A stretch of 47,716 bases of DNA from Kofleriaceae bacterium (GTDB lineage: Bacteria; Myxococcota_A; Polyangia; Haliangiales; Haliangiaceae), in NCBI GenBank assembly GCA_025357755.1, contig JANXOP010000286.1, forward strand, positions 1 to 47,716. The letters are read 5' to 3'. A program made the translations under genes and the position numbers. Positions 2,457 to 47,716 of this stretch are shown one piece after another (positions within the stretch are counted from its first letter, which is position 1; each line of letters starts with the position of its first letter). The notes beneath the pieces were generated by a model. It was given only the letters and a program-made list of their open reading frames with translations. It was not told the origin of the DNA and made no database searches.

Positions 2457-2515
2457 CTGTTCTCTTCTTATCACGCTCAGGGGCCGGAGCTTATTTCCCG
2501 TGCTAGCCTCGCTGC

Positions 2516-2707
2516 GTGAGCTCGCTTGTTCAGCGGAACAAGGTCGTTTCCAAGCGGAAAGGTGCGATGGCAGCTGCCACCGGCGCCGTTGGAGCTGCCG
2601 TGATCGTCGCAGGGGCACCCGTCATCGGCGCGTTAGGCCTCGTCGGCGCGGCCTACCTGGCCTGGGACTGGTTCTCGTTCCGGATGAAGAACGGCATGCG
2701 CTTCTAG
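2516..2707 (+). CDS. Small membrane protein (63 aa)
   Basis: A GTG-started 63-residue protein. The first 16 residues are basic (KRK), followed by a long Gly/Ala/Val-rich hydrophobic stretch (residues about 17-50) that could form one long or two short membrane helices, then a short basic tail. It ends 16 bases before the kinase gene, so it is probably the first gene of that transcript. No family is recognised. It is real rather than chance mainly on the basis of the clean membrane-helix composition, basic flanks and tight spacing to the kinase. Confidence 0.55.
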   Translation: MSSLVQRNKVVSKRKGAMAAATGAVGAAVIVAGAPVIGALGLVGAAYLAWDWFSFRMKNGMRF

Positions 2708-2723
2708 CGATACTGTCGGCGAG

Positions 2724-4271: not shown

Positions 4272-4307
4272 ACTCGCGCGGATCGCCCCGTAAGCTAGCG
4301 GTCCAAC

Positions 4308-6128
4308 ATGACGGCCGCAGCCTCGGGAAATCAGGCGCAATTTGCGCCGCGGCTCAGCGCCGGTGTGCAACTCGGTGAGTACGTCCTCGGCCAGCCGTTG
4401 TGGCCGCTACGGATCGCCGATGCATATCGAGCCAACGGCCCCAAGGGGGCGTCGACCGTCTACGTGATCCACGCAGCGATCGCGGCCGATCCGGTGGTGC
4501 GTGATCAGATCATCGCCGGTACGCGCATCGCGGCGGCGCTGCCCGAGCACAAGCACCTCGTGCGCACGCTCGCGGCAGGTCTCACCGGCGATATCCTGTG
4601 GATCGCGACCGAGGAAGTCGACGGCTCGCTCGTGCGCGACATGCTCGTCAAGAAGCGCCAGGCCGGCACGGCGGGCTTCGGGGCGCGCGGCACGGGCAAC
4701 CTCGTGACCGGCGTGAGTCAGGCGCTCGGCGAGATCCAGCACGGGGCGCTGTCGTCGGAGAGCGTCGTGGTCAGCCGCAACGGTCGCGTGCGAGTCGCGG
4801 ATCTCGCGCTCGGTGCAGGCACGATCGCGGCGATGCGCGCGGGTCACGTGGCCTGGCAAAACTCCGTCGCGCCGGAGATCCAGGGTGGCGGGGCACTCGA
4901 TAGCTACGCCGATGTCTACGCGGTCGGCGCGCTGCTCTACGAAGCGCTCGTCGGCAGCTCGCTCGAACGTGGGGGGCCGCGCCCGAGCGATGTCGTACCC
5001 GGTACGAATACCCAGATCGACGAGATCGTGGCGCGCGCGTGCCACAAGGATCGCGACAAGCGGTTCGGTCGCGTCGACGTGCTCGGCGAGGTCGTGAGCG
5101 AAGCGCTTGGCAAAGGCGGCGCGATGCAGACCACCGCGGTGCCCACGCTCGAGCGCGGGCTCACGCTCGAACAACACGTCGCGCGCACGTCGTCGCTGGC
5201 CGATGGGCTCTCGCCGCTCGCGAGTGGCGCGATTCCGGTCGGCGCGCTCGCGGAAGCTGCCGGCGAGCCTGGACCCGCGGCCTCCGGCAACCTCGTCGTC
5301 GATCGCGCGCTCGCGGCCGCGCTCAGCGACACCGCCGAGAAGTGGCTGATCTCGAAGGGCCGCCTCGATTACGGGCCGTTCTCACTGGCCGAGGTCGTCA
5401 AGCAGATCGACAAGGGCGACATCGTCGCCGGCAACATCATCATGGACAAGGACACCGGCGCGCGCAGCGACGTCGGTTCGCACCCGCTGCTCGGCCCGAT
5501 GGTCGATGCGGCAAAGGCGCGGCTCGATGATCAGCGGCGCGCACAGGCCGAGGTTAAAGTTCAGGGCAAAGAGAAGACTCGCAGCGCGCTGCTCTACGCG
5601 ATCATCGCGGTCGGCGTGATCGGCGCCGGCGTCGCTGCCTACTTCATCTTCAATGCGATGCGCGGCGACGACAAGAGCAAGCTCGTCGCGGGCGTCTCGA
5701 AGCTCGATGGCGCCAAGCTCAACGTCACGGTCTCGATGCCCAAGGTACCGCCTGCGACGAAGCACAAGGCCGGCGGCGGTGGTCATCACGGCGGCGGCGG
5801 TGGACCAGGTGGCGCGAATGCCGGCGAGAACCTCGCGCTCGATCTCTCGGATGATTCGGACGAGACCGAGACGCTCGGCATGGACAAGGTCTACGCGGTG
5901 TACTCCTCGCATGGCGCGCAGCTCGGCGGATGCTTGCAGTCGACCGGATCCTCGGCGGCGAACATCGCGATCATCATCGATGGTCCCTCGGGACACGTCA
6001 CGTTCGTGAAGGTCAACAACCAGGCCTCTGGCGCGCTCTACAACTGCATCAGTCGCCAGATGCGAGGCATGAACTTCCCGACGATCCACGGCCCGCGCAC
6101 GCGCGCCGAGTTCGACATCAACCTGTGA
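4308..6128 (+). CDS. Pseudokinase with GYF_2-like domain, membrane helix and AgmX/TonB-like C-terminus
   Basis: A 606-residue multidomain protein. Residues about 20-265 follow a protein-kinase fold plan, but the catalytic residues are missing: the VAVK position reads VYVIH, the HRD loop reads QHGALSSESV (144-153), and DFG reads DLA (165-167). The C-lobe pattern DVYAVGALLYEALVG (202-216) is kept. Residues about 345-398 match a GYF_2-like module (WLISKGRLDYGPFS). A membrane helix spans about 427-449, a Gly/His-rich run 488-502, and the end (about 524-606) resembles the C-terminal domain of myxobacterial AgmX-type proteins, with conserved Cys542 and Cys580. It follows the active kinase by 36 bases and its stop overlaps the PgpH start, so it may relay or scaffold a kinase signal to that enzyme. 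The role is inferred. Confidence 0.85.
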   Translation: MTAAASGNQAQFAPRLSAGVQLGEYVLGQPLWPLRIADAYRANGPKGASTVYVIHAAIAADPVVRDQIIAGTRIAAALPEHKHLVRTLAAGLTGDILWIATEEVDGSLVRDMLVKKRQAGTAGFGARGTGNLVTGVSQALGEIQHGALSSESVVVSRNGRVRVADLALGAGTIAAMRAGHVAWQNSVAPEIQGGGALDSYADVYAVGALLYEALVGSSLERGGPRPSDVVPGTNTQIDEIVARACHKDRDKRFGRVDVLGEVVSEALGKGGAMQTTAVPTLERGLTLEQHVARTSSLADGLSPLASGAIPVGALAEAAGEPGPAASGNLVVDRALAAALSDTAEKWLISKGRLDYGPFSLAEVVKQIDKGDIVAGNIIMDKDTGARSDVGSHPLLGPMVDAAKARLDDQRRAQAEVKVQGKEKTRSALLYAIIAVGVIGAGVAAYFIFNAMRGDDKSKLVAGVSKLDGAKLNVTVSMPKVPPATKHKAGGGGHHGGGGGPGGANAGENLALDLSDDSDETETLGMDKVYAVYSSHGAQLGGCLQSTGSSAANIAIIIDGPSGHVTFVKVNNQASGALYNCISRQMRGMNFPTIHGPRTRAEFDINL

Positions 6129-8308
6129 GCGCGCCGGTCGCCTCCGGTGCTCCGCGAGCTGTGCTCGCCCACGTGATCGCACGGCGGCCGCACGTGGTGT
6201 GGTGGGCTTCGCTGCTCATGGCGGTCGGCTTCGCGCTCGTGACCTTGCCAGTGCTCACCGCCGACCGTTGGATCGCGGCGCTCGGCGGCGCCCGCATCTC
6301 GAAGGGCGAGCCGGCGCCGATCACCGTACGCGTGCCGCCATTCTTCGGCGGCGACGCCGAGGTTGGCGAGATCGCGCATCACGAGTGGCAACCGAGCAGC
6401 GTGCTGATCGCGCGTGGCGATGTCGCGCGCGGCGATGATGTCGCGCGCGCCGAGCAGCTCGCGGCGAGCACCCCTGGCGGTGCCCTGCCCTACGTCGCGT
6501 TGTTCCTCGTGATCGCGATATTCGCCGGCTTGTTCTCGCATCACGTTCGTCGCACCCCGCGCGGTCGGCTGCTGCGCGTCCAGATCGTGAACCTCGCGCT
6601 CGTCGCGATCCTCGTCGTGGTCGTGAAGATCGCGATGTTGGTAACCCCCTCGAACATCCTGGTCGTCCCGGTCGCGGTGCTCGCGCTGGTCCCGACCTTG
6701 GTCGTGGATCGGATCGTCGGGCTCGCGACGGGCACGCTCGCGGCGCTGCTCGTCGCGCTGTGCGTGCCGTTCGATGTCGGCGTCGCGCTGTTGTTGCTCG
6801 TCCAGGCCGCGATCGCAGGCTTGATGATCGCGGAGCGTCCGAAGCGTCGGCTGAAGTCCTTGCTCGTCGCCGGCGGTGCGGCAACCGTGCTCACCGCGCT
6901 GACCTATCCGGTGCTCCAGTACCTCACGTCCGGTCACGTGCCGTTCGGCGAGCTCGCGGAGCCGACGCGCTCGGCCTGGGTCGCCACGACGCTCGGGCCG
7001 GTGTTCGCGACCGTGCTCGCGGGCGTGCTCGTGCCCCTCTATCAGTTGCTCGTTGGCGAGATCACGGAGCGCAAGCTGATCGAGCTCGAGGATCTGTCGC
7101 AGCCGCTGCTCAAGCAGATCGCCGAGAAGGCCCCGGGCTCGTGGCAACACAGCCTGATGATGGCAAACATGGCGGAGCTCGCGGCGAACTCGATCGGCGC
7201 GAACGGTCGCCTCGTCCGCGTCGGCGCGTACTATCACGACCTCGGCAAGTCGCTCGCACCGAAGTACTTCTTCGAGAACCTCGAGCCCGGCGAGACCTCG
7301 CCACACGACAAGCTCGCGCCCGAGGCCTCGTGCGACGCGATCTTCGCGCACGTCACCGAAGGCATCGTGGCCGCGCGCAAGGCCGGCTTGCACGAGCGCG
7401 TGATCGACTTCATGCACATGCACCACGGCAACGGGGTGCTCGAATACTTTTGGGGCAAGTGCCAGGTCGAGGGCAATCCGAAGCGCCTCACGGTCGAGGC
7501 ATTCCGCTATCCCGGCGTACCGCCCCAGACCCGCGAGACTGCGATCCTCGCGATCTGCGATGCGGTCGAAGCGGCGTCGCGCACGATCAAGAAGGCGGAC
7601 CCGAACGCGCCGAGTGCGATCGATGTGCTCGTCCAGCGCATCGTGTACGGCAAGCTCGATCTCGGCCAGCTCGACGAATCGGGCCTGGCCATGGCTGATC
7701 TCCGCCAGATCACCGAGTCGCTCCGAGAGACCCTCAAGCACGCGAACCAGGGCCGAGGCGATGCGCCGGCGCAGTTCGCGACCGCGAGCTCGGCACCACC
7801 GCTCGACTCGCTCGATCGTTCGGGCACGCCCGATGCGATCCGATCTGCAAAGAGCGAAGCGAAGATCGTCGAAGAGATCGAAGCGACCGCAGACACCGGA
7901 GCGACCGGAGACACCGAGGGCCTCGGCGCGACGCCGAAGTTGCGTCGTATGCCGGCCGGCGAGCCTGCCAACGTCACCGGGCCGCAACCGCGGATCACCG
8001 GACCGCAGGCGACGCTGAACAACGAGCTCGCGAACAGCGCGACCTCACCCATCCCGCTGCTCGAGAAGAAACGAGACCACGTGACGGGGCGCGAATCGAC
8101 GCAGCCGCTCGATGCCGCAGCGCTTGTCGGGGGTGCGGCTCTGACGCGCGATTCGGCGCGGGAGATCGCCGCCACCGGCCGCGTGACGCGCGCGTCGCAG
8201 CCGGACCTCGGCGCGACGCTGGCAGCCGAAGGTGACGAGAGCCGGAGCTCGCGTGATTCGCGCCGCGAGGCGGATCGCTTGGCGATGGCGCAGCGCTACG
8301 CGATCTAG
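6125..8308 (+). CDS. 7TM-HD family phosphohydrolase, PgpH-like (predicted c-di-AMP phosphodiesterase)
   Basis: A 727-residue protein from a GTG that overlaps the preceding stop (GTGA). It has a first membrane helix (about 25-45), a short external segment (about 46-118) ending in LIARGDVARGDDVARAEQL, which resembles the end of the 7TMR-HDED domain, then about seven helices (121-310). The cytosolic HD domain (about 325-535) keeps the metal ligands: His342, His371-Asp372, His409, the HMHHG motif at 431-435 and Asp479. Known PgpH proteins hydrolyse c-di-AMP to pApA. Here the external domain is only about 75 residues, much shorter than usual. Residues 541-727 are a low-complexity Pro/Ser/Thr/Ala tail. 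The TAG stop at 8306-8308 is followed by open sequence in the same frame (see next gene). cdaA and cdaR in this window would make the substrate. Confidence 0.88.
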   Translation: MSAPVASGAPRAVLAHVIARRPHVVWWASLLMAVGFALVTLPVLTADRWIAALGGARISKGEPAPITVRVPPFFGGDAEVGEIAHHEWQPSSVLIARGDVARGDDVARAEQLAASTPGGALPYVALFLVIAIFAGLFSHHVRRTPRGRLLRVQIVNLALVAILVVVVKIAMLVTPSNILVVPVAVLALVPTLVVDRIVGLATGTLAALLVALCVPFDVGVALLLLVQAAIAGLMIAERPKRRLKSLLVAGGAATVLTALTYPVLQYLTSGHVPFGELAEPTRSAWVATTLGPVFATVLAGVLVPLYQLLVGEITERKLIELEDLSQPLLKQIAEKAPGSWQHSLMMANMAELAANSIGANGRLVRVGAYYHDLGKSLAPKYFFENLEPGETSPHDKLAPEASCDAIFAHVTEGIVAARKAGLHERVIDFMHMHHGNGVLEYFWGKCQVEGNPKRLTVEAFRYPGVPPQTRETAILAICDAVEAASRTIKKADPNAPSAIDVLVQRIVYGKLDLGQLDESGLAMADLRQITESLRETLKHANQGRGDAPAQFATASSAPPLDSLDRSGTPDAIRSAKSEAKIVEEIEATADTGATGDTEGLGATPKLRRMPAGEPANVTGPQPRITGPQATLNNELANSATSPIPLLEKKRDHVTGRESTQPLDAAALVGGAALTRDSAREIAATGRVTRASQPDLGATLAAEGDESRSSRDSRREADRLAMAQRYAI

Positions 8309-38529: not shown

Positions 38530-39126
38530 ATGAACCTCGGCGTTCTGGTTTCGGGGACGGGGACGAATCTGCAAGCGCTGCTCGACGCCGAGGCGCGCGG
38601 CGAGCTCGGCGCTGCGCGGATCGCGATCGTGATCTCCAATAATCCCGGTGCGGCCGCGCTCGCGCGCGCGACCGCGGCCGGCAAGCCCGCGCTCGCGATC
38701 GATCACCGCGGCCTCGCGCGGATGGCATTCGAGGATCTGCTGATCGCCGGCTTACGCGAGGTCGAGCTCGTCGTGCTCGCGGGCTTCATGCGCGTGCTGA
38801 CGCCACACTTTCTCGATCGGTTCGCGGGCCGCGTGATCAATACGCACCCGTCGCTCCTGCCCGCGTTCCCGGGCATGGATGCACCGGGTCAGGCGATCGC
38901 GGCCGGGGCGAAGGAGAGTGGCGTCACCGTGCACGTCGTCGATGCGAGCGTCGATGGGGGGCCCGTGCTCGCGCAGGTCGCGGTGCCCGTCGTGGCGGGC
39001 GACACCGCGGAGACACTCCACCTGCGGATCCAGGCGGCCGAGCACGTGCTGCTGCCGCGCATCGTTCGCGAAATTGCCGACGGTCGGATCGTGCTAGCTT
39101 CGCCGGGCCCGCCTCGTGCCGAGTAA
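38530..39126 (+). CDS. purN: Phosphoribosylglycinamide formyltransferase
   Basis: A 198-residue GAR transformylase using 10-formyl-tetrahydrofolate. Motifs: VLVSGTGTNLQALLDA (5-20), ISNNPGAAAL, LAGFMRVLTPHFL, the catalytic INTHPSLLPAFPG with Asn-His, and the final Asp in VVDASVDGGPVLAQ. Full length. Its 3' end overlaps the FAD-dependent oxidoreductase gene by 11 bases, indicating coupled translation. Confidence 0.96.
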   Translation: MNLGVLVSGTGTNLQALLDAEARGELGAARIAIVISNNPGAAALARATAAGKPALAIDHRGLARMAFEDLLIAGLREVELVVLAGFMRVLTPHFLDRFAGRVINTHPSLLPAFPGMDAPGQAIAAGAKESGVTVHVVDASVDGGPVLAQVAVPVVAGDTAETLHLRIQAAEHVLLPRIVREIADGRIVLASPGPPRAE

Positions 39127-40612
39127 TTCCTACGACCTCGTCGTCCTCGGTGATGACCTCGCCGCGCTCGTGTGCGCCACGTTGTGCGCACGCCGTGGCA
39201 TGCGCACCCTGATCCTCGGCGACGATCGCCCTGCCCGCTACCAGCTCGGCCCGCACAAGCTGCCGATCGAGCCCGTGGTGTGGCCGACCGTCGCCGGCTC
39301 CGCCGCCGAGCGCGTGCTCAAGGAGCTCCACGGCGAGCTCGCGCTGCGTCGCAAGTTTCGCGAGCCGCGGATCGCGGCGCAGATCGTCGCCCCGGATTTC
39401 CGCGTCGACCTCGGTGGCGATCGGATCGCCGCGGAGCTCGCGCGCGAACTGGGCGCGACCAGCGAAGCCTCGCTCGCGCGCTGGCAAAAAGGCTCCGAGG
39501 TCGCGCGCCAGTTCGATCCGTTGCTCGGTAGCGAGCACGCGTTCCCGGGCGTCGGCTTCTTCGAACGGCGCGAAGTCGCGAAGCTCGCCGAGCACCTCGG
39601 GGCGACCGCCGCGACCTGGTGGAAGGATGTCGAGACCGATCCGAGCGTGGCGCTGTGGCGCGGCCTCGCCGCGATCGCGCTGCGCCATCCCGATGCCCCA
39701 CCCGCCGCGATCGCACGCGCGCTCGATGCCTGGTACGCCGGGCCGCCCGCGCTGCGCGGCGACGGCGATGCGATCCGCGAGCTGCTCGTCGAGAAGCTCA
39801 CGACCGCCGGCGGTGAAGTTCGCAGCGGCACGGTCGCCGAGGTGAACATCTCGTGGTCCAAGATCTCGAGCATCATCCTCGCGAATGGTGACGAGATCGG
39901 GTGCGGTCAGGTCGTCGCGAGCCGCTCGCCGCAGGCACTCGTCGATCTGCTCGGCAAGAAGGCGCCCAAGCAGCTACCTCAGCTCGCCGCGACGATGTCG
40001 ATCGTCGGCTATCGCTACACGCTGAACATCGTGCTCGACGAGGCCGGCTTGCCGGAGCACATGGCGCCGACCGTCGCCGTGATCTCCAGCCTCGACAAGG
40101 CGCCGGTCGGTGATGTCGCCTTCTCCGTGCACCTCGGCGAGGCCGACGATGCCGGTCGCGTGGTTGCGACGATCGCGGCGGTGCTGCCGACCGAGGGCGT
40201 GATCGAGCCCGATCGCCTGGTCGCCAAGTGCATGGCGCTGCGCACCGGCTTGTGGCGCCGGCTCGGCGATGTTATGCCATTCTTCGAGAAGCACCTCGTG
40301 CTCGCACACTCGCCATTCGAAGCAACGCCGCCGCACGTGCCGGGTGGCCGCGGTAGCTACGACGTGCCGCGGAACCTGCCGTTGCCGATGATGCCGGTGT
40401 GGAAGGGCTCGCTCGCGGCGACCGCCGAGACCGGTGCACTTCCGTACGTCACCGGGCTCAAGAACCTCACGCTCACCGGCGATCAGGTCTTGCCCGTGCT
40501 CGGCACCGAAGGCGCCCTCGCCTCGGGATGGAGCGCGGCGAAGGTCGCCTGCGCGCTCGCCGGCAAGAAGAAAGACTACCTGCGCGACGAAGTCGTCGGC
40601 GCGGCTAGCTGA
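39116..40612 (+). CDS. Phytoene-desaturase-like FAD-dependent oxidoreductase
   Basis: A 498-residue protein whose first 40 residues form an FAD-binding Rossmann unit with a degenerate glycine motif (YDLVVLGDDLAALVCATLCA instead of GxGxxG). The C-terminal end has the matching FAD loop (TGDQVLPVLGTEGALASGWS), as in amine oxidases and carotenoid desaturases. The middle part is Ala-rich and not recognisable. Start GTG 39116, overlapping purN by 11 bases. The altered glycine motif leaves it open whether it still binds FAD. Substrate unknown; link to purine synthesis probably only operonic. Its end overlaps the next convergent gene by 8 bases. Confidence 0.75.
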   Translation: MPSNSYDLVVLGDDLAALVCATLCARRGMRTLILGDDRPARYQLGPHKLPIEPVVWPTVAGSAAERVLKELHGELALRRKFREPRIAAQIVAPDFRVDLGGDRIAAELARELGATSEASLARWQKGSEVARQFDPLLGSEHAFPGVGFFERREVAKLAEHLGATAATWWKDVETDPSVALWRGLAAIALRHPDAPPAAIARALDAWYAGPPALRGDGDAIRELLVEKLTTAGGEVRSGTVAEVNISWSKISSIILANGDEIGCGQVVASRSPQALVDLLGKKAPKQLPQLAATMSIVGYRYTLNIVLDEAGLPEHMAPTVAVISSLDKAPVGDVAFSVHLGEADDAGRVVATIAAVLPTEGVIEPDRLVAKCMALRTGLWRRLGDVMPFFEKHLVLAHSPFEATPPHVPGGRGSYDVPRNLPLPMMPVWKGSLAATAETGALPYVTGLKNLTLTGDQVLPVLGTEGALASGWSAAKVACALAGKKKDYLRDEVVGAAS

Positions 40613-42482
40613 GTCGCGGCAGCTCGAGCTGATCGGCGCGCGCTTCGTCCGAAACGACGAGGATGATCGTGGTGTCGGTGGTCGTCGCGCCGCGGACCAT
40701 CGCGACCGCACCGTGCGCGCGCGCTTCGAGCACGAGCTCGCGTGGATCGACGTTCGGATCGGCCGCGAGGATCGCACCGCCGACCAGCGGCAGCATCGCC
40801 TCGGCGACGAGCCCGAGTGGCTGATCTTCGGGCGCGACGACCACGCACGCGCTGAGCAGCTCGATCGGCCCCGGCGTGCCGACGATCGTGCCCGTCGCGG
40901 GATGCAGCTGATCGAGCATGCGCTGCGCGAAGGTCGCGAGGCGGATGCGTGAATCGCGGAACGTGGCGACCTCGGAGCTCGCGAGCTGGCCGCGACCGAG
41001 CGCTTCGTCCCAGTTCTGCGCGAGCACCCGCGCGAGGTCGACCGGAGCAACGCCGGGTTCACCGCACAGGTGGGCACCGTAGAGGAACGCGAGCCCGGCG
41101 TGGAGCGGCGCGGCGATCGCGAGCCGCTGCGCGAGCAGCTCGATCGCGAGGACGTTGGGAGGCAGCCGCGTTGTCGTGCCGACGATCACCGAGCGGGTCC
41201 AGATCGCGAGCTCGTCGCGCCAGTGGATCGAGGGCGGCGCGGGAGGCGGTGCGACCGGCTCGATCGCGCGAGGCACCGCGGCGGCGAGTGACGACGTGCT
41301 CGCGCGCCAGGAGCTGAAGCGATCAGCGAGCGAGACGGCGACCGACTTCATCGGCGCGCGCGGCCCGGGATCGACGGGCGGCCGCGCGATCACCATGGCT
41401 GGCGCCATTCCAGGAGGCGCTTGCATGACCGGTGATGGTGAAAGCACCGCAGGTGGCGCGACCGGCTCGGGCAACGCGTCGCCGTACAGCGTCGAGGTCC
41501 GAACAGGAGCCTCGGCAAATCCTGGATCTTGCACGTCAGCTTGGTCGTGCCGTTCGGCTCGGCGCGGTTCCGGCGCGAACGACGCTGGCACCGAGACCGA
41601 GGCCTCGAGCTCGCGGCCATCGAGCGCGACCAATACGACCGGTCGGCGCGCCTGTGCCGCGAGCACCGCGCTCGTCCGCGTGATGACGAGCCCGGCGGCC
41701 TCGACTCGATCGATGCCTTCGAGATCGATCGCGCGGATCGCGGCTTTGCGATCGAGGTCGACACCGTACAGCCGTCCCGTATCGGTGCCGATGCACGCGA
41801 GTACGTCGCTGCGCGGATGCGACGCCACATAACCGATCGGCTCCGGCAGCTCGTGGAACTTCGGCTGGCCACGATTCACGAGCGCGAACACGTCGAGCCG
41901 CGTGGGATCCTGCTGGGTGGTCATCCACACCACGCGATCGCTACCGCCGAGTGCGGTGATGACCCCAGGCTTCGGCAGCTTCAAGCGCCGCTTCGGCATC
42001 CGCGACTGCGGATCCCACTCCTCGATCGCTCCGGGCACCGCGACGACGAACAGCGGTCCCGCCGCCCCGCCCTTCGTCGGCACCGCGCGCGCGGGAAACT
42101 GATAGGGTGTGAGGTGCGTCTCGGTCGCGGTCAGCACCGCGGCCCCGAGTGCGCCGAGCGCGAGCGCGTGGATGCCGACCGACGCCATCAACCGCATCGG
42201 TGATTCGAGCCGGATCTCCGCGATCGTCCGCGGCCCGCGCGGATCGAGGAGGTGCACCGTGCTGTGCGCGGCGAAGCGCGAGAGGACCGCGAGCCGTGGC
42301 GGCGAGCCGAGCCACACCACTTCGCTGGCCCCCGCCTCTGGATCGACGCCGACCTCCGCGATCGCCGTACAGCTCGGCAGCGCGAGCACCGTGATCCGCG
42401 ACGGTTCGTGGATCGCGGCCAGGGTGCCGTCGCTCGCGACCGAGATGCGCGGAGCCTGCGCCGGCACGAAGCCCATGACCAC
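40605..42482 (-). CDS. Large unknown protein: beta-propeller-like N-terminus, Pro-rich linker, helical C-terminus
   Basis: A 625-residue protein, GTG at 42482 or ATG at 42476. Residues about 10-300 show repeating short beta strands (RISVASDGTLAAIHEPSRIT, VVWLGSPPRLAVLSRFA, DVLACIGTDTGRLYGVDLDR) like WD40/quinoprotein propeller blades. Residues about 310-410 are a Pro/Ala-rich linker, presumably disordered. The rest (about 430-610) is mixed alpha/beta and ends DTTIILVVSDEARADQLELP. No signal peptide or membrane helix. No family is recognised; the layout suggests a scaffold or sensor. Convergent overlap of 8 bases with the FAD gene. Confidence 0.7.
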   Translation of the reverse strand: MVMGFVPAQAPRISVASDGTLAAIHEPSRITVLALPSCTAIAEVGVDPEAGASEVVWLGSPPRLAVLSRFAAHSTVHLLDPRGPRTIAEIRLESPMRLMASVGIHALALGALGAAVLTATETHLTPYQFPARAVPTKGGAAGPLFVVAVPGAIEEWDPQSRMPKRRLKLPKPGVITALGGSDRVVWMTTQQDPTRLDVFALVNRGQPKFHELPEPIGYVASHPRSDVLACIGTDTGRLYGVDLDRKAAIRAIDLEGIDRVEAAGLVITRTSAVLAAQARRPVVLVALDGRELEASVSVPASFAPEPRRAERHDQADVQDPGFAEAPVRTSTLYGDALPEPVAPPAVLSPSPVMQAPPGMAPAMVIARPPVDPGPRAPMKSVAVSLADRFSSWRASTSSLAAAVPRAIEPVAPPPAPPSIHWRDELAIWTRSVIVGTTTRLPPNVLAIELLAQRLAIAAPLHAGLAFLYGAHLCGEPGVAPVDLARVLAQNWDEALGRGQLASSEVATFRDSRIRLATFAQRMLDQLHPATGTIVGTPGPIELLSACVVVAPEDQPLGLVAEAMLPLVGGAILAADPNVDPRELVLEARAHGAVAMVRGATTTDTTIILVVSDEARADQLELPRLS

Positions 42483-42548: not shown

Positions 42549-42797
42549 TCAATCGTACTGACCCAACAGGTCGATCAGATCGATCAGGTCCTGATTGGTT
42601 CGATAGCTCGGGTGGTCGACGTAATAGAGATCTTCCAACTTCAGGGCGAGTTCGTCCTCGCTCATGCGGCCAAGAGCGCCGGTGCGTGACGCTCGTTTGA
42701 CGCGGTTAATATCGAGCGGCTCCTTGTCGCTCGGCGCGGCCGCCTTCGCACGTGCGATGCGTTCGACTCGCGTTTGCCGGTCCGCGGACCCGCTCAT
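42549..42797 (-). CDS. 82-aa protein carrying a domain also found at the C-terminus of the SUMF1-fold protein
   Basis: Residues about 9-82 match the last 75 residues of the protein at 45337-46404: R.E..ARAKA, KEPxD, GRM, a shared LE..YYVD.P stretch and a T before the final helix. In this protein these read RVERIARAKAA (10-20), DKEPLDI (24-30), GRMSEDEL (43-50) and KLEDLYYVDHP (53-63). It has no other domain. It is charged and helical, with an Asp/Leu-rich tail (LIDLIDLLG). The ATG overlaps the stop of the upstream two-helix membrane gene (ATGA), so the pair is co-translated. Function unknown; the shared unit may be a protein-protein or targeting module. It is not a shadow, since the two copies support each other. 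Confidence 0.75.
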   Translation of the reverse strand: MSGSADRQTRVERIARAKAAAPSDKEPLDINRVKRASRTGALGRMSEDELALKLEDLYYVDHPSYRTNQDLIDLIDLLGQYD

Positions 42798-43063
42798 TTG
42801 TCGAGAGGTGACACGACCGTTGCTCGTGGCGGTCCATTCAGCGCGTCGAGGACCGGGTGTGAAACGTTCGCGCGGCGCAGCCGGAGCAGGACCGCGTAGC
42901 CGCGCCGCCAGTACATGACCGTCGCCGTCGCGAAGCAGATCGGCGCGACCCAGAATGGCCCAAAGATCACGAACGCGACGCCGGTGCCGGCGACCACGAC
43001 GATGCGAGCCAGCTCTCGTCGATAAGCCGCGCGCAGGGCATGTGCGAGCGCCACGTCCGGCAT
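42794..43063 (-). CDS. Small membrane protein with two helices
   Basis: An 89-residue protein with two closely spaced hydrophobic helices (about 18-36 ARIVVVAGTGVAFVIFGPF and 38-50 APICFATATVMYW), forming a hairpin, then a basic cytoplasmic-type tail (RRGYAVLLRLRR). The ATG at 43063 was used; a GTG at 43087 would add eight residues. Its stop overlaps the start of the 82-aa gene by 4 bases, so they form a pair, perhaps a membrane anchor and its soluble partner. No family is recognised. Confidence 0.6.
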   Translation of the reverse strand: MPDVALAHALRAAYRRELARIVVVAGTGVAFVIFGPFWVAPICFATATVMYWRRGYAVLLRLRRANVSHPVLDALNGPPRATVVSPLDK

Positions 43064-43108
43064 GATTTCAGAATGCGGCGGAAGCACGAAAGGCGCAATC
43101 GCGATCGT

Positions 43109-43825
43109 TCACGGCGTGAACGCATGGATCGCGGTCGCGAGGCGTTGCGTCTCGACCGGATCGAGCACGCCTAGCTCTCGCTCGATGCCCGTACCCACCA
43201 GATAGGCGTCGACGTACGGCAGGTACTCGCCGATATTCGCGGTCGTCACCCCAGATGCGAGGGCAAGCGCGACGTTCGCGCCTTCACGCATGGCGCGCGG
43301 CTTCGCCGGGTCCGCCGCGTAGCCGGTCCCCGGGCCGCTCGTGCAGACGACATCGACGAAACTCTCGGCGGTCGCGGCGGCGAGCCCGAGGTCTTCGCGC
43401 GCGACCTCGCGCTGGTACTTGAAAGCGACGCCGCCGAAGTACAGGCCGGTCCAGCCGAGCTTCGCGCGCGCTTCGATGAACCGATGCGCGACCGGCTGCT
43501 CGGTGGCGCGTTCGTCGACGCCAGCATTATCCGACCAGATGCCGTCGATCCGACCGCAACCCGCGAGCGCGTACGCGAGTGCGTCGGCGGGCGAGCGTGA
43601 CAGGAGGTTCACGCCAACCCACAGCGATGGATGGCGGCGATAGATTTCGTTGATCAGATCGACGACACCAGCTTCGTCGAGGCCCTGATTGATCGTGAAG
43701 ATCCCATCGGCACCGGCATCGACCGCCACCTCGACAGCGACGAGTGCGCGTTCCCGATCGACCGGATGGACGACAGGGAGAAGCACGCGACGTTTGCCGA
43801 ACACGTCGGCGATCCGATTGGGCAT
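43109..43825 (-). CDS. BtpA/SgcQ-like TIM-barrel family protein
   Basis: A 238-residue protein with a TIM-barrel pattern: LLPVVHPVDRERALVAVE near the start, DGIFTINQGLDE, GVNLLSRSPADALAYA, then FGGVAFKYQ, VDVVCTSGPGTGYAADP and DAYLVGTGIERE. The FGGVAFK-(xx)-VDVVCTSGPGTG arrangement resembles the BtpA family, a putative phosphate-binding barrel of unclear activity (named for a photosystem I biogenesis protein, also in sugar operons). The frame is open to 43978, but the ATG at 43825 follows GAAGGTCGAG and starts the conserved strand. It lies amid small unknown genes and may be the only broadly conserved gene of that stretch. Confidence 0.7.
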   Translation of the reverse strand: MPNRIADVFGKRRVLLPVVHPVDRERALVAVEVAVDAGADGIFTINQGLDEAGVVDLINEIYRRHPSLWVGVNLLSRSPADALAYALAGCGRIDGIWSDNAGVDERATEQPVAHRFIEARAKLGWTGLYFGGVAFKYQREVAREDLGLAAATAESFVDVVCTSGPGTGYAADPAKPRAMREGANVALALASGVTTANIGEYLPYVDAYLVGTGIERELGVLDPVETQRLATAIHAFTP

Positions 43826-43938
43826 TTTGCGCTCGACCTTCGAGCGATAGTAACGCGAAAGCGTCACGCTCCCCGCTGACCTCAGCGCCCGAGGAGCAGA
43901 TCGAATACGACCCCGGTCAGTCGAAGCCGATTCGATGG

Positions 43939-44367
43939 TCACGGGTCCGATTTGACCACCGATGCGTCCGCACTGCACCTGGGAGGATCAATCCCGAGCT
44001 CTACTGCACGTGCCGTGATCAGCGCGTCGGCGTCGTGATCGCGTTCGTCATCGAACACGGATTCTGCGGCTGTGCCTCGGTACAGCTCGTACGCGAGCTC
44101 GAGCTGCGAGCGACGCGACACAGCACCGACGAGCGCGTCTTCCCCCCCGAAATTAACGGCGCGGAAGATTCGCGCTGCCCACGGCTCGAACCAGTTCGCG
44201 ACGTTGCGAGCGTCGGCAAGCACCGGGGCTGTGCGCGTGACAAAGTCGTTATGGTCAGCGATTTCGGCGCAAAGTCTTGGAATCAACGCCATGAAGTCCC
44301 CGAAGCCGTCACCATCGACGGGTATCGCGAGCAGTAATCGTTCCGCCGCTTGTTCGAGCTCGGTCAT
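43939..44367 (-). CDS. Acidic helical protein of unknown function (142 aa)
   Basis: A soluble acidic protein with helices EQAAERLLLAIPVDG, FMALIPRLCAEIADHNDFVT and RSQLELAYELYRG, and a paired WF..W motif (NWFEPWAARIFRAVNF). The ATG at 44367 overlaps the stop of the upstream small gene by 4 bases (ATGA), so the genes of 43939-45171 are translated together. No family, signal peptide or membrane helix is recognised. Small acidic proteins in such strings are often immunity proteins, but there is no toxin identified here, so this is only a possibility. Confidence 0.6.
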   Translation of the reverse strand: MTELEQAAERLLLAIPVDGDGFGDFMALIPRLCAEIADHNDFVTRTAPVLADARNVANWFEPWAARIFRAVNFGGEDALVGAVSRRSQLELAYELYRGTAAESVFDDERDHDADALITARAVELGIDPPRCSADASVVKSDP

Positions 44368-44572
44368 GGTTCCTCGACTGTACGTGGCGCTCGCGGACCG
44401 TGCGCGTCCTCGCTCGAGAGCTGCGAAATCAAGAAGGCGCGATCTTCAAAGGGCTTCGTCACCGCGCAGTCCTCGAACATGAGCGTGCATGTTGCCGCGA
44501 ACCCGCGCGGCATGCCACGCCGGCGCCGCCGAGCGGACGAATCAGGATCGGGTCGAAGACGGATTCGGTCAT
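44364..44572 (-). pseudogene. Small gene, probably frameshifted
   Basis: An ATG at 44572 overlaps the stop of the upstream gene (ATGA) and begins MTESVFDPILIRPLGG, but that frame ends at 44459 with an unlikely Arg/Ser-rich tail. A different frame, with ATG at 44513, reads MPRGFAATCTLMFEDC then AVTKPFEDRAFLISQL and ends at 44364, exactly overlapping the next start. Joined by a -1 shift near 44513-44530, the two pieces give one plausible protein of about 69 residues linking both neighbours. Alternatively the 49-residue product from 44513 is a gene by itself. A sequencing error or a real frameshift cannot be told apart here. Confidence 0.4.
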
Positions 44573-45171
44573 AGCTTCGGCGGCAAGTCGCGCACGTCCG
44601 CAAAGCCAGCGTCCGTGATTGCGAATGGATAATGACGCGACGTTCCGCCACCCGCGCCAAGCGCCGCGATGACTCGCTCGAGGCGTGGCCGATTCGCCGC
44701 GGCCGCCCCGTTCAGTCGTGCGTGTCCGTGCGCGTCGTATGTTGCCGATAGCCACACGTCAATTGCCGTCGAGTAGCTCACGTAGACCGACGACACGCTC
44801 GTCTCGGGCGGCGCGATACTCCACTGGAGCGTGCCTGCGTCTGGGATCCAGCCACGATCGATGACGTCCGTGTCTAGATTCACGAAGACGGCACTCACCG
44901 CCACCGAAGGCCCGAGGCTTCGCAACGCATCCGTCACGTCATTCCACGAGAGCGCCGGTAACTCGTTCAAGTCGTGGAACGCGATCTCTGTTCCGGCATC
45001 ATTGAATTCGCCCCAACTCACCTGCAAACCATGTGGTTGGTGCAGGGTTACCAATGCTCGCTCGATCGTCGAGACCACCCAGAGCGACGCCTGGAGCGCC
45101 GACAAACCGGTCGGAACCTGCAACTCGCGGTGCCATTCACCAACCTCACCTGAAAAGCCCCAGCTATTCAT
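44569..45171 (-). CDS. Unknown protein (200 aa), first of a coupled trio
   Basis: A 200-residue protein from ATG 45171; a TTG at 45207 would extend it by 12 residues. It is Trp-rich near the N-terminus (NSWGFSGEVGEWHRELQVP), with an alternating beta pattern in the middle (PSVAVSAVFVNLDTDVIDRG, SSVYVSYSTAIDVWLS) and a Gly/Thr loop near the end. No signal peptide. No family is recognised; the fold looks like a mixed alpha/beta single domain. Its stop overlaps the following ATG. Codon use is less GC-extreme than in the housekeeping genes. Confidence 0.6.
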   Translation of the reverse strand: MNSWGFSGEVGEWHRELQVPTGLSALQASLWVVSTIERALVTLHQPHGLQVSWGEFNDAGTEIAFHDLNELPALSWNDVTDALRSLGPSVAVSAVFVNLDTDVIDRGWIPDAGTLQWSIAPPETSVSSVYVSYSTAIDVWLSATYDAHGHARLNGAAAANRPRLERVIAALGAGGGTSRHYPFAITDAGFADVRDLPPKL

Positions 45172-45297
45172 CGCGTGAAGTCGAACTCGCGATGGGACGT
45201 GTTGCAACCCACGAGCAGCTCTCCATAAAGTTTGGTGTCATCGAGCACGCTGCTAACGCTCGTTCGGTCATGGTTTCGCCGGGATCGCGGTAACGGC

Positions 45298-45317
45298 CCG
45301 CGCCGCTGACGGCGCGG
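45298..45317 (-). terminator. Strong GC hairpin after the SUMF1-fold gene
   Basis: CCGCGCCG (45298-45305) and CGGCGCGG (45310-45317) form a perfect 8-bp stem with a 4-base loop, in the 165-base gap (45172-45336) between the SUMF1-fold gene and the next gene downstream. No U-run follows, so it may be a weak terminator or an RNA-stability hairpin. The rest of the gap shows no gene. Confidence 0.35.
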
Positions 45318-45336
45318 CGCTCGACTCTCCGGGATT

Positions 45337-46404
45337 TCAGGACCACGAGTTGAGGACCTTCATCTGTTCGGCACACTCGGCAAGCGTCTTCACGTGCGGA
45401 TAGTCGACGTAGTACTTCTCCTCGAGACGCGCGTGGCGCACGGCTTCGGAATCCATCCGCCCTTCGCTGCTCGTATCGACGAGCTTTTCGAGCTTCGCGA
45501 GGTCGAACGGCTCCTTCCCGTACAACGCACCTCTGGCCTTGGCACGAGCGAGCGACTCGGCGCGCGTCTTGATGTTCAGCGCGCGGATCTCTTCGAAGAA
45601 GTCTTCGGCTGCCTTGCCGGTGAGCGGACCGGTCGATTTCGTCAGTGATGCGGCGGACGTGCGGCGCAGCACCCGAAACTTCATGTGTTCACGACGCTCG
45701 GTTTCGGGCACTCCGCGCCGAGATACGGTCGTCGCGTCCTGGCGGATGTCGTATCCGCCACGCTGCACGCGCTGGCCAGCCCAGTTCGGCCACAGCGTTT
45801 CAAAGGCGGCGACGTTCGCGCCCGGATACGGCCCGAACTTGCTCGCCGTGTACTCGCCAAAGGTGCCGAGCAGATCGTGGATCCCTCGCGGATTCGCCGC
45901 GGGGCGCGAGCCGACCTGGTAAGTCTCGAGAGTTGGCGGCGTGAACGCTACGTCGCCCTGGGGGAAGTACGCATCCCCCCACGTGAACAGCCGGCGATCG
46001 ACACGCGCCGCACACTCCCACTCGGCCTCGGTCGGCAACTCGCCGCCATCATCCAGCGCGTACTGCATCGCTTCCTGCCACGAGATACCGGTGACGAAGT
46101 CTTCCGGAGGGCCGCGACGCGCCGCTGGCCGCGCACCGTACACATCGACGTACGCCGACCACTGCGCATTCGTGACCGGATACACGTCGATCTCGAACTC
46201 CGCGATATCGACAGCGTGTGATGGCATTGCCGTTTCGATCCACGCTCGACGATCGGCGCGAACCTCCTCGAGGTCCGGCCGGCCCATTTTTGGAGTCGAG
46301 ACGGCAAGCTCCATCTTCGCCAGTTCGAGCGCGAGCCGATCCGCCTCCTCGGGCCGCAGTCCGATCTCGAACAGTTGTCCGGGGACTTTGATGCGCGCTA
46401 CCAC
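45337..46404 (-). CDS. SUMF1/FGE-fold protein lacking the catalytic Cys, with a shared C-terminal domain
   Basis: A 355-residue protein, GTG start at 46404. Residues about 60-248 match the formylglycine-generating-enzyme/SUMF1 fold: DIAEFEIDVYPVTNAQWSAY, VTGISWQEAMQYA, GELPTEAEWECAAR (121-134), FTWGDAYFPQGDVAF, NPRGIHDLLGTFGEYT, QRVQRGGYDI and KFRVLRR. The usual Cys near the end (R..C R.a.R) is missing; the stretch reads TTVSRRGVPE, so it cannot make formylglycine by the known mechanism. Such folds also serve as ligand-binding C-type-lectin-like modules. Residues about 280-355 (RAESLARAKA, KEPFDL, GRMDSE, EEKYYVDYPHVKT) form the domain shared with the 82-aa protein at 42549. Residues 1-55 are an unrecognised helix-rich part. 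Role unknown. Confidence 0.8.
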   Translation of the reverse strand: MVARIKVPGQLFEIGLRPEEADRLALELAKMELAVSTPKMGRPDLEEVRADRRAWIETAMPSHAVDIAEFEIDVYPVTNAQWSAYVDVYGARPAARRGPPEDFVTGISWQEAMQYALDDGGELPTEAEWECAARVDRRLFTWGDAYFPQGDVAFTPPTLETYQVGSRPAANPRGIHDLLGTFGEYTASKFGPYPGANVAAFETLWPNWAGQRVQRGGYDIRQDATTVSRRGVPETERREHMKFRVLRRTSAASLTKSTGPLTGKAAEDFFEEIRALNIKTRAESLARAKARGALYGKEPFDLAKLEKLVDTSSEGRMDSEAVRHARLEEKYYVDYPHVKTLAECAEQMKVLNSWS

Positions 46405-46858
46405 GATCTCTGCGCCTCGGCGTGTACGGCGAATGAGGTAAGCATCATGTCGTTCGTCTAGTTGAAGAGTACATCCCGGTGCTGGTCTTGAGGGTCCGGC
46501 CTGTCAGACCCCGCCATCCGCCATTCGCGTTGCTCAGCTGCGGGCATCGGCGCGATGTGAGACCGAGGCGTTCGGTCGTAACGTCGATGAGCGACGCAGG
46601 CTACGCCGGTTCGAGGGCGCGCCCAGCAGCAATTCGTCGAGCCGACGGTTCATGCGATCTGCACGCGGAATCATGTCGGCGAGGTAGTCAAATGGCTGAT
46701 CTAGAATGCCTCCCATCTACGTGATCGATTCGCGGGTGACGGACGCGACCGTCGCCCGCACGACGACGTGCCGTCCGTTTCGCAAGCCAGACCCGACGTC
46801 GCGAACTTCGGCACGACGATGAAGGATCTGGCACCGTTCGCGGTTGCTGGTCGTGTGC
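46405..46858. other. 454-base stretch without a confident gene
   Basis: GC is clearly lower than in the housekeeping part. Only short frames are seen: a minus-strand ORF (46534-46716) and plus-strand fragments (46706-46881), both listed with low confidence. The stretch separates the SUMF1-fold gene from the zinc-ribbon gene, and probably holds the promoter of the former; no clear -10/-35 boxes are identified. Confidence 0.6.
46534..46716 (-). CDS. Possible 60-aa protein or gene fragment
   Basis: An ATG at 46716, immediately after a TAG in the same frame, begins GGILDQPFDYLADMIPRADR and continues MNRRLDELLLG, which has plausible helical coding character; the rest (from about residue 34) is Arg/Ser-rich and unconvincing. 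It may be the front of a gene broken by a frameshift near 46615. No ribosome site is clear. Confidence 0.25.
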   Translation of the reverse strand: MGGILDQPFDYLADMIPRADRMNRRLDELLLGAPSNRRSLRRSSTLRPNASVSHRADARS

Positions 46859-46881
46859 TCAAGACCGCAGCAGCGTACTAA
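46706..46881 (+). pseudogene. Possible remnant of a small gene, split over two frames
   Basis: An ATG at 46706 starts PPIYVIDSRVTDATVARTT, and a second frame of the same strand reads DVANFGTTMKDLAPFAVAG followed by RVLKTAAAY to a TAA at 46879-46881. Joining them by one frameshift near 46790-46800 gives a protein-like sequence of about 58 residues. The end overlaps the stop of the convergent zinc-ribbon gene. Speculative. Confidence 0.2.
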
Positions 46882-47665
46882 CCGCTTCGCGGTATGTCGC
46901 TAACACTGCCGCGATCCGCGATCCCCGGAATCGTCCCGGCTCACCCGCGCGAAGTGCGCGGCCTTCGTGCGAAAAAAGCGCTACCTCAGGAACCGCGTCG
47001 GTATCCGCCGCGACAAACTTGAGTGCTTCCTCAAGAGCGACTACCGCTCGTTCTAGAAAACGCGCTCCTGCCCGTCGTTCATCGGCGTTGAGCGTTGCCA
47101 GGTCAGCAGGCACCTGCCGTGCCATTTGCTCAGCGGCAAGTAGCCACTGGCCTGCGTCAACCACCGTTGACGCTGCGTGGTCGTCGCCGCCGATCACGAA
47201 CTCCACCTGTCTCATGCGGCCGCAGACGGCACATACACCTTCGTAGATCGCAAGAACGTGCCCGTTCCGTGCCGAAATTCGGACGTTTTGAATCGTGGCA
47301 TCACCGCACACACATGGGTGAAACATCAGATAGACGATGCACTCGTAGTCAAACCGAACAATCAACTTCTCGTCTGCGGATGGCATGAGCTGCTTCAGCA
47401 GGGGCTCGTTGTTCGGCGTCACCCGGGACCGAACCGCTTCGCCATAGTTGTTGATCAGCTCGTTGAGGTCTCCGCTGAGCGCGTTCGGAACGACCGCCTG
47501 CAAATACAGCAGTGCGGCAAGTCGCTGGCGACGTGAGAGCACCTGCAAAACCGCGAGGTGCGTCGACGACAGCTCGCCGATAGTCTCTACGACCCGGAGC
47601 TCATCTTGAGTCACGGTTCTCCCGAGAGCGTTTTCGACTTGGCCACGCCCTTTGAACTCGCTCAT
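46859..47665 (-). CDS. Unknown protein with a zinc-ribbon-like Cys cluster
   Basis: A 268-residue protein from ATG 47665. Residues about 115-158 contain HPCVCG and, after about 25 residues, CAVCGRMRQVEFVIG: four or five cysteines with knuckle spacing, suggesting a zinc ribbon that binds nucleic acid or protein. The N-terminal 90 residues are helical (RRQRLAALLYLQAVVP), and the C-terminal 100 are helical and Ala-rich (RFLERAVVALEEALKFV). No family is recognised. Codon use and GC are less extreme than in the rest of the window. The remaining 51 bases to the window end show no feature. Confidence 0.6.
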   Translation of the reverse strand: MSEFKGRGQVENALGRTVTQDELRVVETIGELSSTHLAVLQVLSRRQRLAALLYLQAVVPNALSGDLNELINNYGEAVRSRVTPNNEPLLKQLMPSADEKLIVRFDYECIVYLMFHPCVCGDATIQNVRISARNGHVLAIYEGVCAVCGRMRQVEFVIGGDDHAASTVVDAGQWLLAAEQMARQVPADLATLNADERRAGARFLERAVVALEEALKFVAADTDAVPEVALFSHEGRALRAGEPGRFRGSRIAAVLATYREAVSTLLRS

Positions 47666-47716
47666 TTTGTGTCTGCCGCCTCTGCTACGGTCTTCGATGA
47701 TTGCGTGCTGCTCCAG

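What the first reader, a model, noticed from the sequence alone, without database searches (positions are those of the whole stretch)
42549..46404. Two unrelated proteins 2.5 kb apart end in the same unnamed 70-75 residue domain
The 82-aa protein (42549-42797) and the C-terminus of the SUMF1-fold protein (45337-46404) share, in order, R.E..ARAKA, KEPxD, GRM, LE..YYVD.P and a T before a final helix, all the way to their last residues. One copy is nearly free-standing and coupled to a two-helix membrane protein; the other is fused to a catalytically dead FGE fold. A mobile C-terminal module of this kind could be a recruitment, export or loading signal, or an adaptor, linking otherwise unrelated cargo. 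This is the best candidate for an undescribed system in the window.
Basis: seen in the sequence. Interest (0 to 1): 0.72.

Follow-up and report, generated by a model that had tools for sequence, protein, structure and literature searches.

The report
Orphan Arc1-type antitoxin genes in array
Two neighbouring genes of an uncultured myxobacterium carry the same small antidote domain, known from the plant-pathogen pair AvrRxo1/Arc1, and they look like leftover immunity genes against a family of NAD-modifying toxins that sister species carry on giant weapon proteins.

Summary
The 82-aa protein and the last ~95 residues of the FGE-fold protein are homologous (E 1.2e-7 in the whole genome). The domain is not undescribed: it is Arc1 (AvrRxo1-ORF2), antitoxin of the kinase AvrRxo1, which makes 3'-NADP from NAD. 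A family profile built without Arc1 has the solved Arc1 as its only PDB hit (2.9e-21); the FGE-fused copy alone gives 1.3e-14; the 82-aa model matches the same chain (TM 0.77).

In seven sister genomes, 6 of 9 Arc1-like genes directly follow a gene, often giant, with an AvrRxo1-like kinase domain. In the order, 8 of 35 genomes have Arc1 and 7 of those 8 the kinase; the exception is the window's own, with three copies and no kinase found. The window most likely holds orphan immunity genes at a toxin locus. New, as far as I searched: Arc1 fused to a dead FGE fold; two copies of that fusion in which the FGE part differs mostly silently (15 silent, 9 replacement codons) and the Arc1 part only by replacements (0, 10; p 0.0007); AvrRxo1-type kinases inside two eCIS_core giants. 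Immunity is inferred, not tested.

The parts
42552..42797 (-). free-standing Arc1-like protein, 82 aa (P0001); first helix shortened
45340..45627 (-). Arc1-like domain, last 96 residues of the 355-aa protein; fits the published motif KExFD(x25-27)(Y/L)ExxYY
45628..46404 (-). FGE/SUMF1-fold part of the 355-aa protein (PF03781, 6.2e-24), without a Cys pair
45329..46835 (.). unit present a second time in the genome (93-96% DNA identity): FGE-Arc1 gene plus ~430 bp upstream. The second copy is split over contigs C21 and C89 at the equivalent of 46271/46272, where both flanks run into the same 20 bp in inverted orientation; C89 then holds a transposase-like ORF (by eye)
42797..43087 (-). 97-aa protein with a long hydrophobic stretch; its ORF overlaps that of the 82-aa protein by 4 bp
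43112..43978 (-). BtpA-like protein (PF03437, 6.3e-10) in the same-strand array
43942..44367 (-). 142-aa protein of the array, no Pfam family
44572..45207 (-). 212-aa protein of the array, no Pfam family
46862..47665 (-). 268-aa protein with two Cys pairs, distantly like the genes directly downstream of kinase-Arc1 in L077 and L081 (28% over 142, 27% over 132 columns)
40608..42482 (-). conserved 625-aa anchor gene (15 of 16 genus genomes); just upstream of its orthologue three sisters carry a giant protein (directly in one, behind a 115-119-aa ORF in two)

Best explanation
Both copies are Arc1-family immunity (antitoxin) domains. Each is expected to bind an AvrRxo1-type kinase domain and stop it from phosphorylating NAD to 3'-NADP. 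In this bacterial family the kinase is a domain of giant, in some cases eCIS_core-bearing, proteins, with an Arc1-like gene as cognate immunity. In the window's genome the kinase is gone (or never was there) and the Arc1 genes remain as orphan immunity genes in a same-strand array next to a toxin hot spot, protecting against relatives or neighbours that still carry the kinase. The FGE fold is a catalytically dead partner domain of unknown role (perhaps a second immunity module or a scaffold). Shown: homology, fold match of the 82-aa copy, kinase-Arc1 adjacency in sisters, co-occurrence, no kinase found in the own genome, domain-specific replacement bias. Inferred: binding, neutralisation, protection, and that C21, C89 and the window form one locus.
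For: PDB: profile A2 hits only AvrRxo1-ORF2, 2.9e-21; FGE-fused copy alone 1.3e-14; 82-aa model (pLDDT 84.3) best match 4z8q_B, TM 0.77, probability 1.00, Foldseek E 0.005, all 17 other hits at E above 4. Neighbours: of 9 Arc1-like genes in the 7 kinase-bearing sister genomes, 6 directly follow the kinase gene (L073, L075, L077, L079, L080, L081), one after one more ORF (L076), one about 8 kb further on (L074/L150), one is cut by a contig end (L072); outside the order L083 and the Acidovorax locus L061 also have the kinase upstream. The kinase profile hits AvrRxo1-ORF1 at 7e-90. Co-occurrence in the order: Arc1 in 8 of 35 genomes, kinase in 7, all within the 8 (hypergeometric 1.2e-6). Own genome: no kinase by two searches (the 8 loci returned for zeta-toxin hits rechecked). 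Selection: FGE part 15 silent/9 replacement codons (215 codons, dN/dS 0.16), Arc1 part 0/10 (95 codons), Fisher p 0.0007. Locus: the own-genome relative of the sister giants on C21 carries eCIS_core (8.9e-11), is followed with a 4-bp overlap by a 165-aa ORF and some 1.4 kb further by the second FGE-Arc1 copy, and shares 32% over 616 columns with the kinase-bearing giant L151 of a sister. Published: Arc1 neutralises AvrRxo1 in E. coli; in the authors' dataset avrRxo1 was inactivated with arc1 left intact; a strain with such an arc1 takes up the avrRxo1:arc1 module without growth cost (passages).
Against: No kinase lies by the window copies, so their target is inferred. The genome is a MAG, 89.9% complete with 5.7% contamination: a kinase may be in the missing part, and the second FGE-Arc1 copy may come from another strain. 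In one search only 14 of 42 first-look candidates of the own genome were scored. Taken alone, 0 silent of 10 in the Arc1 part is borderline against neutrality (0.035 to 0.07; counted as 1 of 11, 0.13 to 0.23). Of 37 distinct Arc1 places, 27 have no kinase on the stretch fetched and for 25 none is known elsewhere in the genome either, among them all 16 Nocardia places; G059 (L078), searched whole, also has Arc1 without kinase. Arc1-like genes can thus live without the kinase and may have another role there. The Arc1 of Cystobacter fuscus did not relieve X. oryzae AvrRxo1 (passage), so cross-protection is not automatic. The 82-aa copy alone hits the solved Arc1 only at E 0.4. The tree has few supported branches (3 of 21), and the nearest rows to both window copies are mostly ones without a kinase in view.
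Confidence: 0.72

Rival explanations
1. Partner swap: the 82-aa Arc1-like protein is the antitoxin of the coupled 97-aa membrane protein (toxin first, antitoxin second, as in avrRxo1-arc1), a new two-gene toxin-antitoxin system.
For: 4-bp overlap, same gene order as kinase-Arc1 pairs, small hydrophobic protein.
Against: The 97-aa protein matches only itself among 406 predicted ORFs within 6 kb of Arc1-like genes, the window's included; the gene sits in a longer same-strand run; it does not explain the FGE-fused copy.
Confidence: 0.1
2. The domain is a recruitment, loading or chaperone module: Arc1 tethers a toxin or effector, and the FGE fusion brings it to an injection machine.
For: Arc1 was named AvrRxo1 required chaperone; kinases sit in eCIS_core giants L150 and L151; the domain is shared by unrelated proteins.
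Against: Fused forms L079 and L083 stand in the immunity position behind a kinase gene; no fused partner but the FGE fold has a Pfam match; of six kinase giants scanned, four gave no eCIS_core hit (L073, L076, L158 = L075 in full, L159 = L077 extended; L076 and L159 are cut at a contig end).
Confidence: 0.07
3. Decaying relics: the window copies are leftover immunity genes without function.
For: 82-aa copy has a shortened first helix and KEPLD; the second FGE-Arc1 copy is interrupted by an insertion.
Against: Both window ORFs are intact with coding-like third positions; the FGE part is under purifying selection between copies; the 82-aa model still matches Arc1.
Confidence: 0.1
4. Chance similarity between unrelated proteins.
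For: Short, helical, charged sequences can look alike.
Against: E 1.2e-7, hits of the family profile and of the fused copy alone to one solved chain, fold match.
Confidence: 0.01

Closest known systems
AvrRxo1:Arc1 (AvrRxo1-ORF1:ORF2) toxin-antitoxin / effector-chaperone pair (PMC4938570, abstract and passages; PDB 4z8q)
   Same: Same domain family by sequence and fold; same gene order (kinase first, Arc1 second) in sister genomes; Arc1-like genes without avrRxo1 in Nocardia, Corallococcus and Leptospira were already reported there.
   Different: Window copies have no kinase neighbour; one is fused to an FGE fold; in this family the kinase is mostly a domain of giant proteins, not a type III effector; the 82-aa copy departs slightly from the motif.
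Orphan immunity gene arrays of type VI systems (Vibrio cholerae, PMC5361080, abstract seen)
   Same: Same-strand run of immunity-like genes next to a toxin locus; immunity kept where the effector is absent.
   Different: Polymorphic-toxin setting in a myxobacterium; immunity function of the array genes is not shown; linkage to the C21 giant is inferred.
eCIS-associated DUF4157/eCIS_core toxins (PMC8213781, passages seen)
   Same: Giants with eCIS_core in the own genome (C21) and in two sisters (L150, L151), the latter two with AvrRxo1-like kinase domains.
   Different: The main text of that paper holds neither 'AvrRxo1' nor 'zeta toxin' (word search); whether particles are made here was not tested.
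Formylglycine-generating enzyme family (PF03781)
   Same: Fold and part of the sequence.
   Different: Single Cys in the FGE part, C-terminal Arc1 domain; no enzyme function expected.

Membership tests
Arc1 / AvrRxo1-ORF2 | sequence homology to Arc1 | tested here: met
   A2 profile 2.9e-21; FGE-fused copy alone 1.3e-14. The 82-aa copy alone gives only E 0.4; its membership rests on its match to the fused copy (1.2e-7), to a G012 member (1.0e-5) and on the fold
Arc1 / AvrRxo1-ORF2 | motif KExFD(x25-27)(Y/L)ExxYY | tested here: inconclusive
   met by the FGE-fused copy; the 82-aa copy has KEPLD and spacing one short; of 24 rows of A5, 5 fit the strict form
Arc1 / AvrRxo1-ORF2 | fold of 4z8q_B | tested here: met
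   82-aa model TM 0.77 to 4z8q_B; fused copy: same helix order at high confidence, not superposed
Arc1 / AvrRxo1-ORF2 | gene directly downstream of an AvrRxo1-type kinase | tested here: not met
   no kinase in the window or found in its genome; met in sister genomes. Published Arc1 homologues also include ones without avrRxo1
Arc1 / AvrRxo1-ORF2 | binds and neutralises the kinase | not testable with these tools
   needs co-expression
Orphan immunity gene | immunity homologue not linked to its toxin, toxin linked to homologues in relatives | tested here: met
Orphan immunity gene | cognate toxin absent from the whole genome | tested here: inconclusive
   none found, but the MAG is 89.9% complete and not all candidates were scored
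Formylglycine-generating enzyme | catalytic Cys pair | tested here: not met
   only Cys131 in the FGE part

The most novel reading that the evidence does not exclude
The FGE-Arc1 protein is a composite immunity protein in which a conserved dead-FGE scaffold (itself binding another toxin or a shared part of the toxin) presents a fast-diversifying Arc1 domain to new kinase variants; the cassette duplicates and re-specifies as the toxins change. AvrRxo1, known as a plant effector, would then belong to a wider bacterial-warfare family with its own orphan-immunity arms race.
Probability: 0.25. Interest if true: 0.75.

Novelty: new variant of a known kind. Interest (0 to 1): 0.55.

Why it matters
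It links a plant-pathogen effector known for making 3'-NADP to giant toxin-like proteins of soil myxobacteria, with Arc1 as immunity, and gives a testable source for the effector pair. It also offers a fused immunity protein whose immunity half differs between copies by replacements alone while the other half is conserved, a direct handle on how immunity specificity evolves. Toxins associated with extracellular contractile injection systems were reported mostly without immunity genes (passage); these loci give candidates.

Tried and rejected
Chance similarity: rejected. Known families: for 13 domain members the best matches are E 0.019 (PHROGs), 0.044 (NCBIfam) and 0.022 (Pfam), each family in one member only; PADLOC nothing at E 0.01 for 9 proteins. 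Of 30 matches, I kept 13 (3 own, 10 others) and dropped 17: 10 after looking at them (no motif), 7 on their weak scores without a look (L019, L020, L022, L025-L027, L029). One search's C209 hit (E 1.1) lies antisense to a long ORF that I recognise from memory as glycyl-tRNA synthetase and was dropped; so was G026 (E 0.007, one stop). Viral contigs: 47 pattern matches, none a relative; plasmids and phages: no match with the fused copy. Zeta-toxin Pfam model in the own genome: 52 matches, 3 at or over the cut-off, best 29.3 bits; I take them for generic P-loops, but only the 8 loci returned were checked and had no kinase-profile hit. I first took the giants next to the anchor gene in sisters for kinase toxins; BLAST shows no kinase in them. 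Arc1 tree: too few supported branches to date losses. Foldseek of the FGE-Arc1 model listed FGE-type folds in the 50 rows shown, so the two window copies were not superposed on each other. Rows dropped: of 40 Arc1 instances, 3 are duplicates (L049, L053, L070); of the 37 distinct, 24 went into alignment A5 and the tree, 13 were left out (12 Nocardia and L069).
Full report
Observation. The two ORFs and the shared motifs are real. Searching the whole genome with the 82-aa protein finds the FGE-fused copy at E 1.2e-7 and a third copy, in a near-identical FGE fusion on another contig, at 6.6e-7. A profile of these three against 144 relatives gave 30 matches, of which I accepted 13: 3 own and 10 in eight other genomes, the best at 2.4e-16 and 8e-14. 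The 13-row profile A2 found 12 places in 8 of 35 genomes of the order (these are its own rows) and members in 7 of 377 genomes sampled from the phylum with 13 candidates scored per genome; four of these seven genomes are new, at 5.5e-26 to 1.1e-10.

Identity. Profile A2 has one hit in all solved chains: AvrRxo1-ORF2, E 2.9e-21. The FGE-fused copy alone gives 1.3e-14 over residues 2-96 of 96; the 82-aa copy alone only 0.4. The predicted structure of the 82-aa copy (pLDDT 84.3, pTM 0.72) has four helices, and its one meaningful PDB match is the same chain (TM 0.77 by query length, probability 1.00, E 0.005). The FGE-Arc1 model (pLDDT 73, pTM 0.56) shows the same helix order at its C-terminus with high confidence, and an FGE fold before it. 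AvrRxo1-ORF2 was renamed Arc1; it neutralises AvrRxo1 in E. coli, and its homologues share the motif KExFD(x25-27)(Y/L)ExxYY (passages of PMC4938570). The FGE-fused copy fits the motif; the 82-aa copy misses it by one residue and one spacing. AvrRxo1 makes 3'-NADP from NAD (abstract start and passages of PMC5491322).

Distribution. A scan of GTDB genomes gave 23 loci: Nocardia, Streptomyces, Acidovorax, Paracidovorax, a planctomycete and myxobacteria. None in viral contigs, plasmids or phages at the sensitivity used. Of 37 distinct Arc1 places, 10 have a kinase-profile match on the fetched stretch (L069 is partial) and 27 do not; of the 27, L074 has the kinase about 8 kb upstream on the same contig (L150) and L072 on other contigs of the same genome (L081, L151), which leaves 25 with none in view, including all 16 Nocardia places. 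Triplett and colleagues had already noted Arc1 homologues without avrRxo1 in Nocardia, Corallococcus and Leptospira.

The toxins. In the window's own genus and family the kinase-bearing ORFs next to Arc1-like genes measure 2258 aa (L073) and 2162 aa (L080); 3288 aa (L075, in full as L158); at least 4245 aa (L077, extended as L159), at least 1256 aa (L076) and at least 577 aa (L081), these three cut at a contig end; and 443 aa (L079). The six compared (L073, L075-L077, L079, L080) share a ~330-aa kinase region (pairwise BLAST E about 1e-24 to 1e-107), at the C-terminus in five and internal in L076. Its profile hits AvrRxo1-ORF1 at 7e-90. Spacing is tight: 4-bp overlap in L073, 3-bp gap in L079. 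Two further kinase giants, L150 (3871 aa) and L151, carry eCIS_core domains; L073, L076, L158 and L159 gave no such hit. L080 has a second, partial kinase piece downstream of its Arc1 gene, as expected if toxin domains are displaced.

The missing toxin. With the kinase profile, 7 of 144 relatives match, and all 7 also have Arc1-like genes; Arc1 without kinase is seen in the window's genome and in G059 of another family. Within the order: Arc1 in 8 of 35, kinase in 7, overlap 7 (hypergeometric 1.2e-6; related genomes are not independent). The absence in the own genome is provisional: the MAG is 89.9% complete, 14 of 42 candidates were scored, and a zeta-toxin model finds only weak matches.

The locus. 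The anchor gene at 40608-42482 is found in 15 of 16 genus genomes. Eight sister loci were fetched; the neighbour at 39116-40609 is beside it in 5 of 8, and none of the 8 shows the window's array genes upstream of it, with 1.1 to 8.2 kb in view. In three (L141, L142, L146) a giant protein, homologous among them, lies just upstream, directly in one and behind a 115-119-aa ORF in two. A search of the genus with a piece of that giant matches these three genomes and the own genome; the own match closest by identity is on contig C21 (77% over the 43 residues present there, against 35-36% for two longer matches on other contigs). The C21 protein carries eCIS_core, shares 32% over 616 columns with the kinase-bearing L151, and is followed by a 165-aa ORF (4-bp overlap) and, some 1.4 kb on, by the second FGE-Arc1 copy. 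That copy is split between C21 and C89: their homology to the window abuts at 46271/46272, and the two flanks run into the same 20 bp in inverted orientation, as the ends of an insertion element would. That C21, C89 and the window are one locus is inferred from synteny and not shown. The window's 268-aa array gene is distantly like the genes directly downstream of kinase-Arc1 in L077 and L081 (28% over 142 columns, 27% over 132; E 0.001 to L077 among 406 neighbours).

Selection. Between the two FGE-Arc1 copies, 215 codons of the FGE part differ by 15 silent and 9 replacement codons (dN/dS 0.16), and 95 codons of the Arc1 part by 0 and 10. Fisher's exact test for the contrast gives 0.0007; the Arc1 part alone is borderline. 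Residues 1-45 were not compared. If the copies come from two strains in a mixed MAG the contrast still holds, but they would be alleles rather than paralogues.

Fusions. Four fused forms were seen: FGE-Arc1 (window), ~235 aa-Arc1 (L083), ~245 aa-Arc1 (L056) and Arc1-~340 aa (L079); only the FGE part has a Pfam match. L079 follows a kinase gene directly and L083 lies about 0.6 kb after a kinase frame, so fused forms can hold the immunity position. The FGE part keeps one Cys only, so formylglycine chemistry is not expected.

Verdict. The domain is a known antitoxin family in an unusual setting. The most likely role is orphan immunity against AvrRxo1-type kinases. The novel points are the FGE fusion with its contrast in selection, and the kinase in giant, partly eCIS_core, proteins. 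I found no paper in the held library with AvrRxo1 together with polymorphic toxins, eCIS or contractile injection. One search listed 30 of 88 AvrRxo1 papers; I looked into three of them (PMC4938570, PMC5491322 and PMC10989847, passages; the last uses AvrRxo1 as a toxic control in E. coli) and saw only the listing for the rest; two searches listed 4 and 1 papers that I did not open. This library lacks most subscription journals, and the Arc1 structure paper was not held.

Noticed in passing
L153 (G000:C21) 1621-7334: Own-genome eCIS_core protein of at least 1739 aa with a HELGH stretch near its C-terminus, followed with a 4-bp overlap by a 165-aa ORF: a likely second toxin-immunity pair.
   Followed up: partly
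L080 6543-6923: Partial kinase piece downstream of an intact kinase-Arc1 pair: a possible displaced toxin tip.
   Followed up: no
L074 7392-8252, L076 92-679, L056 8230-9219: Genes directly downstream of Arc1 in two myxobacteria and a Streptomyces share a ~135-aa C-terminal region without a Pfam family.
   Followed up: partly
L077 5471-6703, L081 1992-2843, window 46862-47665: Cys-pair proteins recurring next to Arc1 genes, in L077 fused to pentapeptide repeats.
   Followed up: partly
L149 6041-7486: A second FGE fold without Arc1 but with a ~240-aa N-terminal extension, 38% identical to the window FGE part.
   Followed up: no
L084, L085: Arc1-like genes right after a response-regulator-like gene (by eye) in another myxobacterial family, no kinase in view.
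   Followed up: no
L159 344-13078: Kinase giant with an Annexin match (2.5e-18) in its middle.
   Followed up: no
window 46859-47716: The frame of the 268-aa ORF stays open to the contig end, so the array may continue beyond the window.
   Followed up: no
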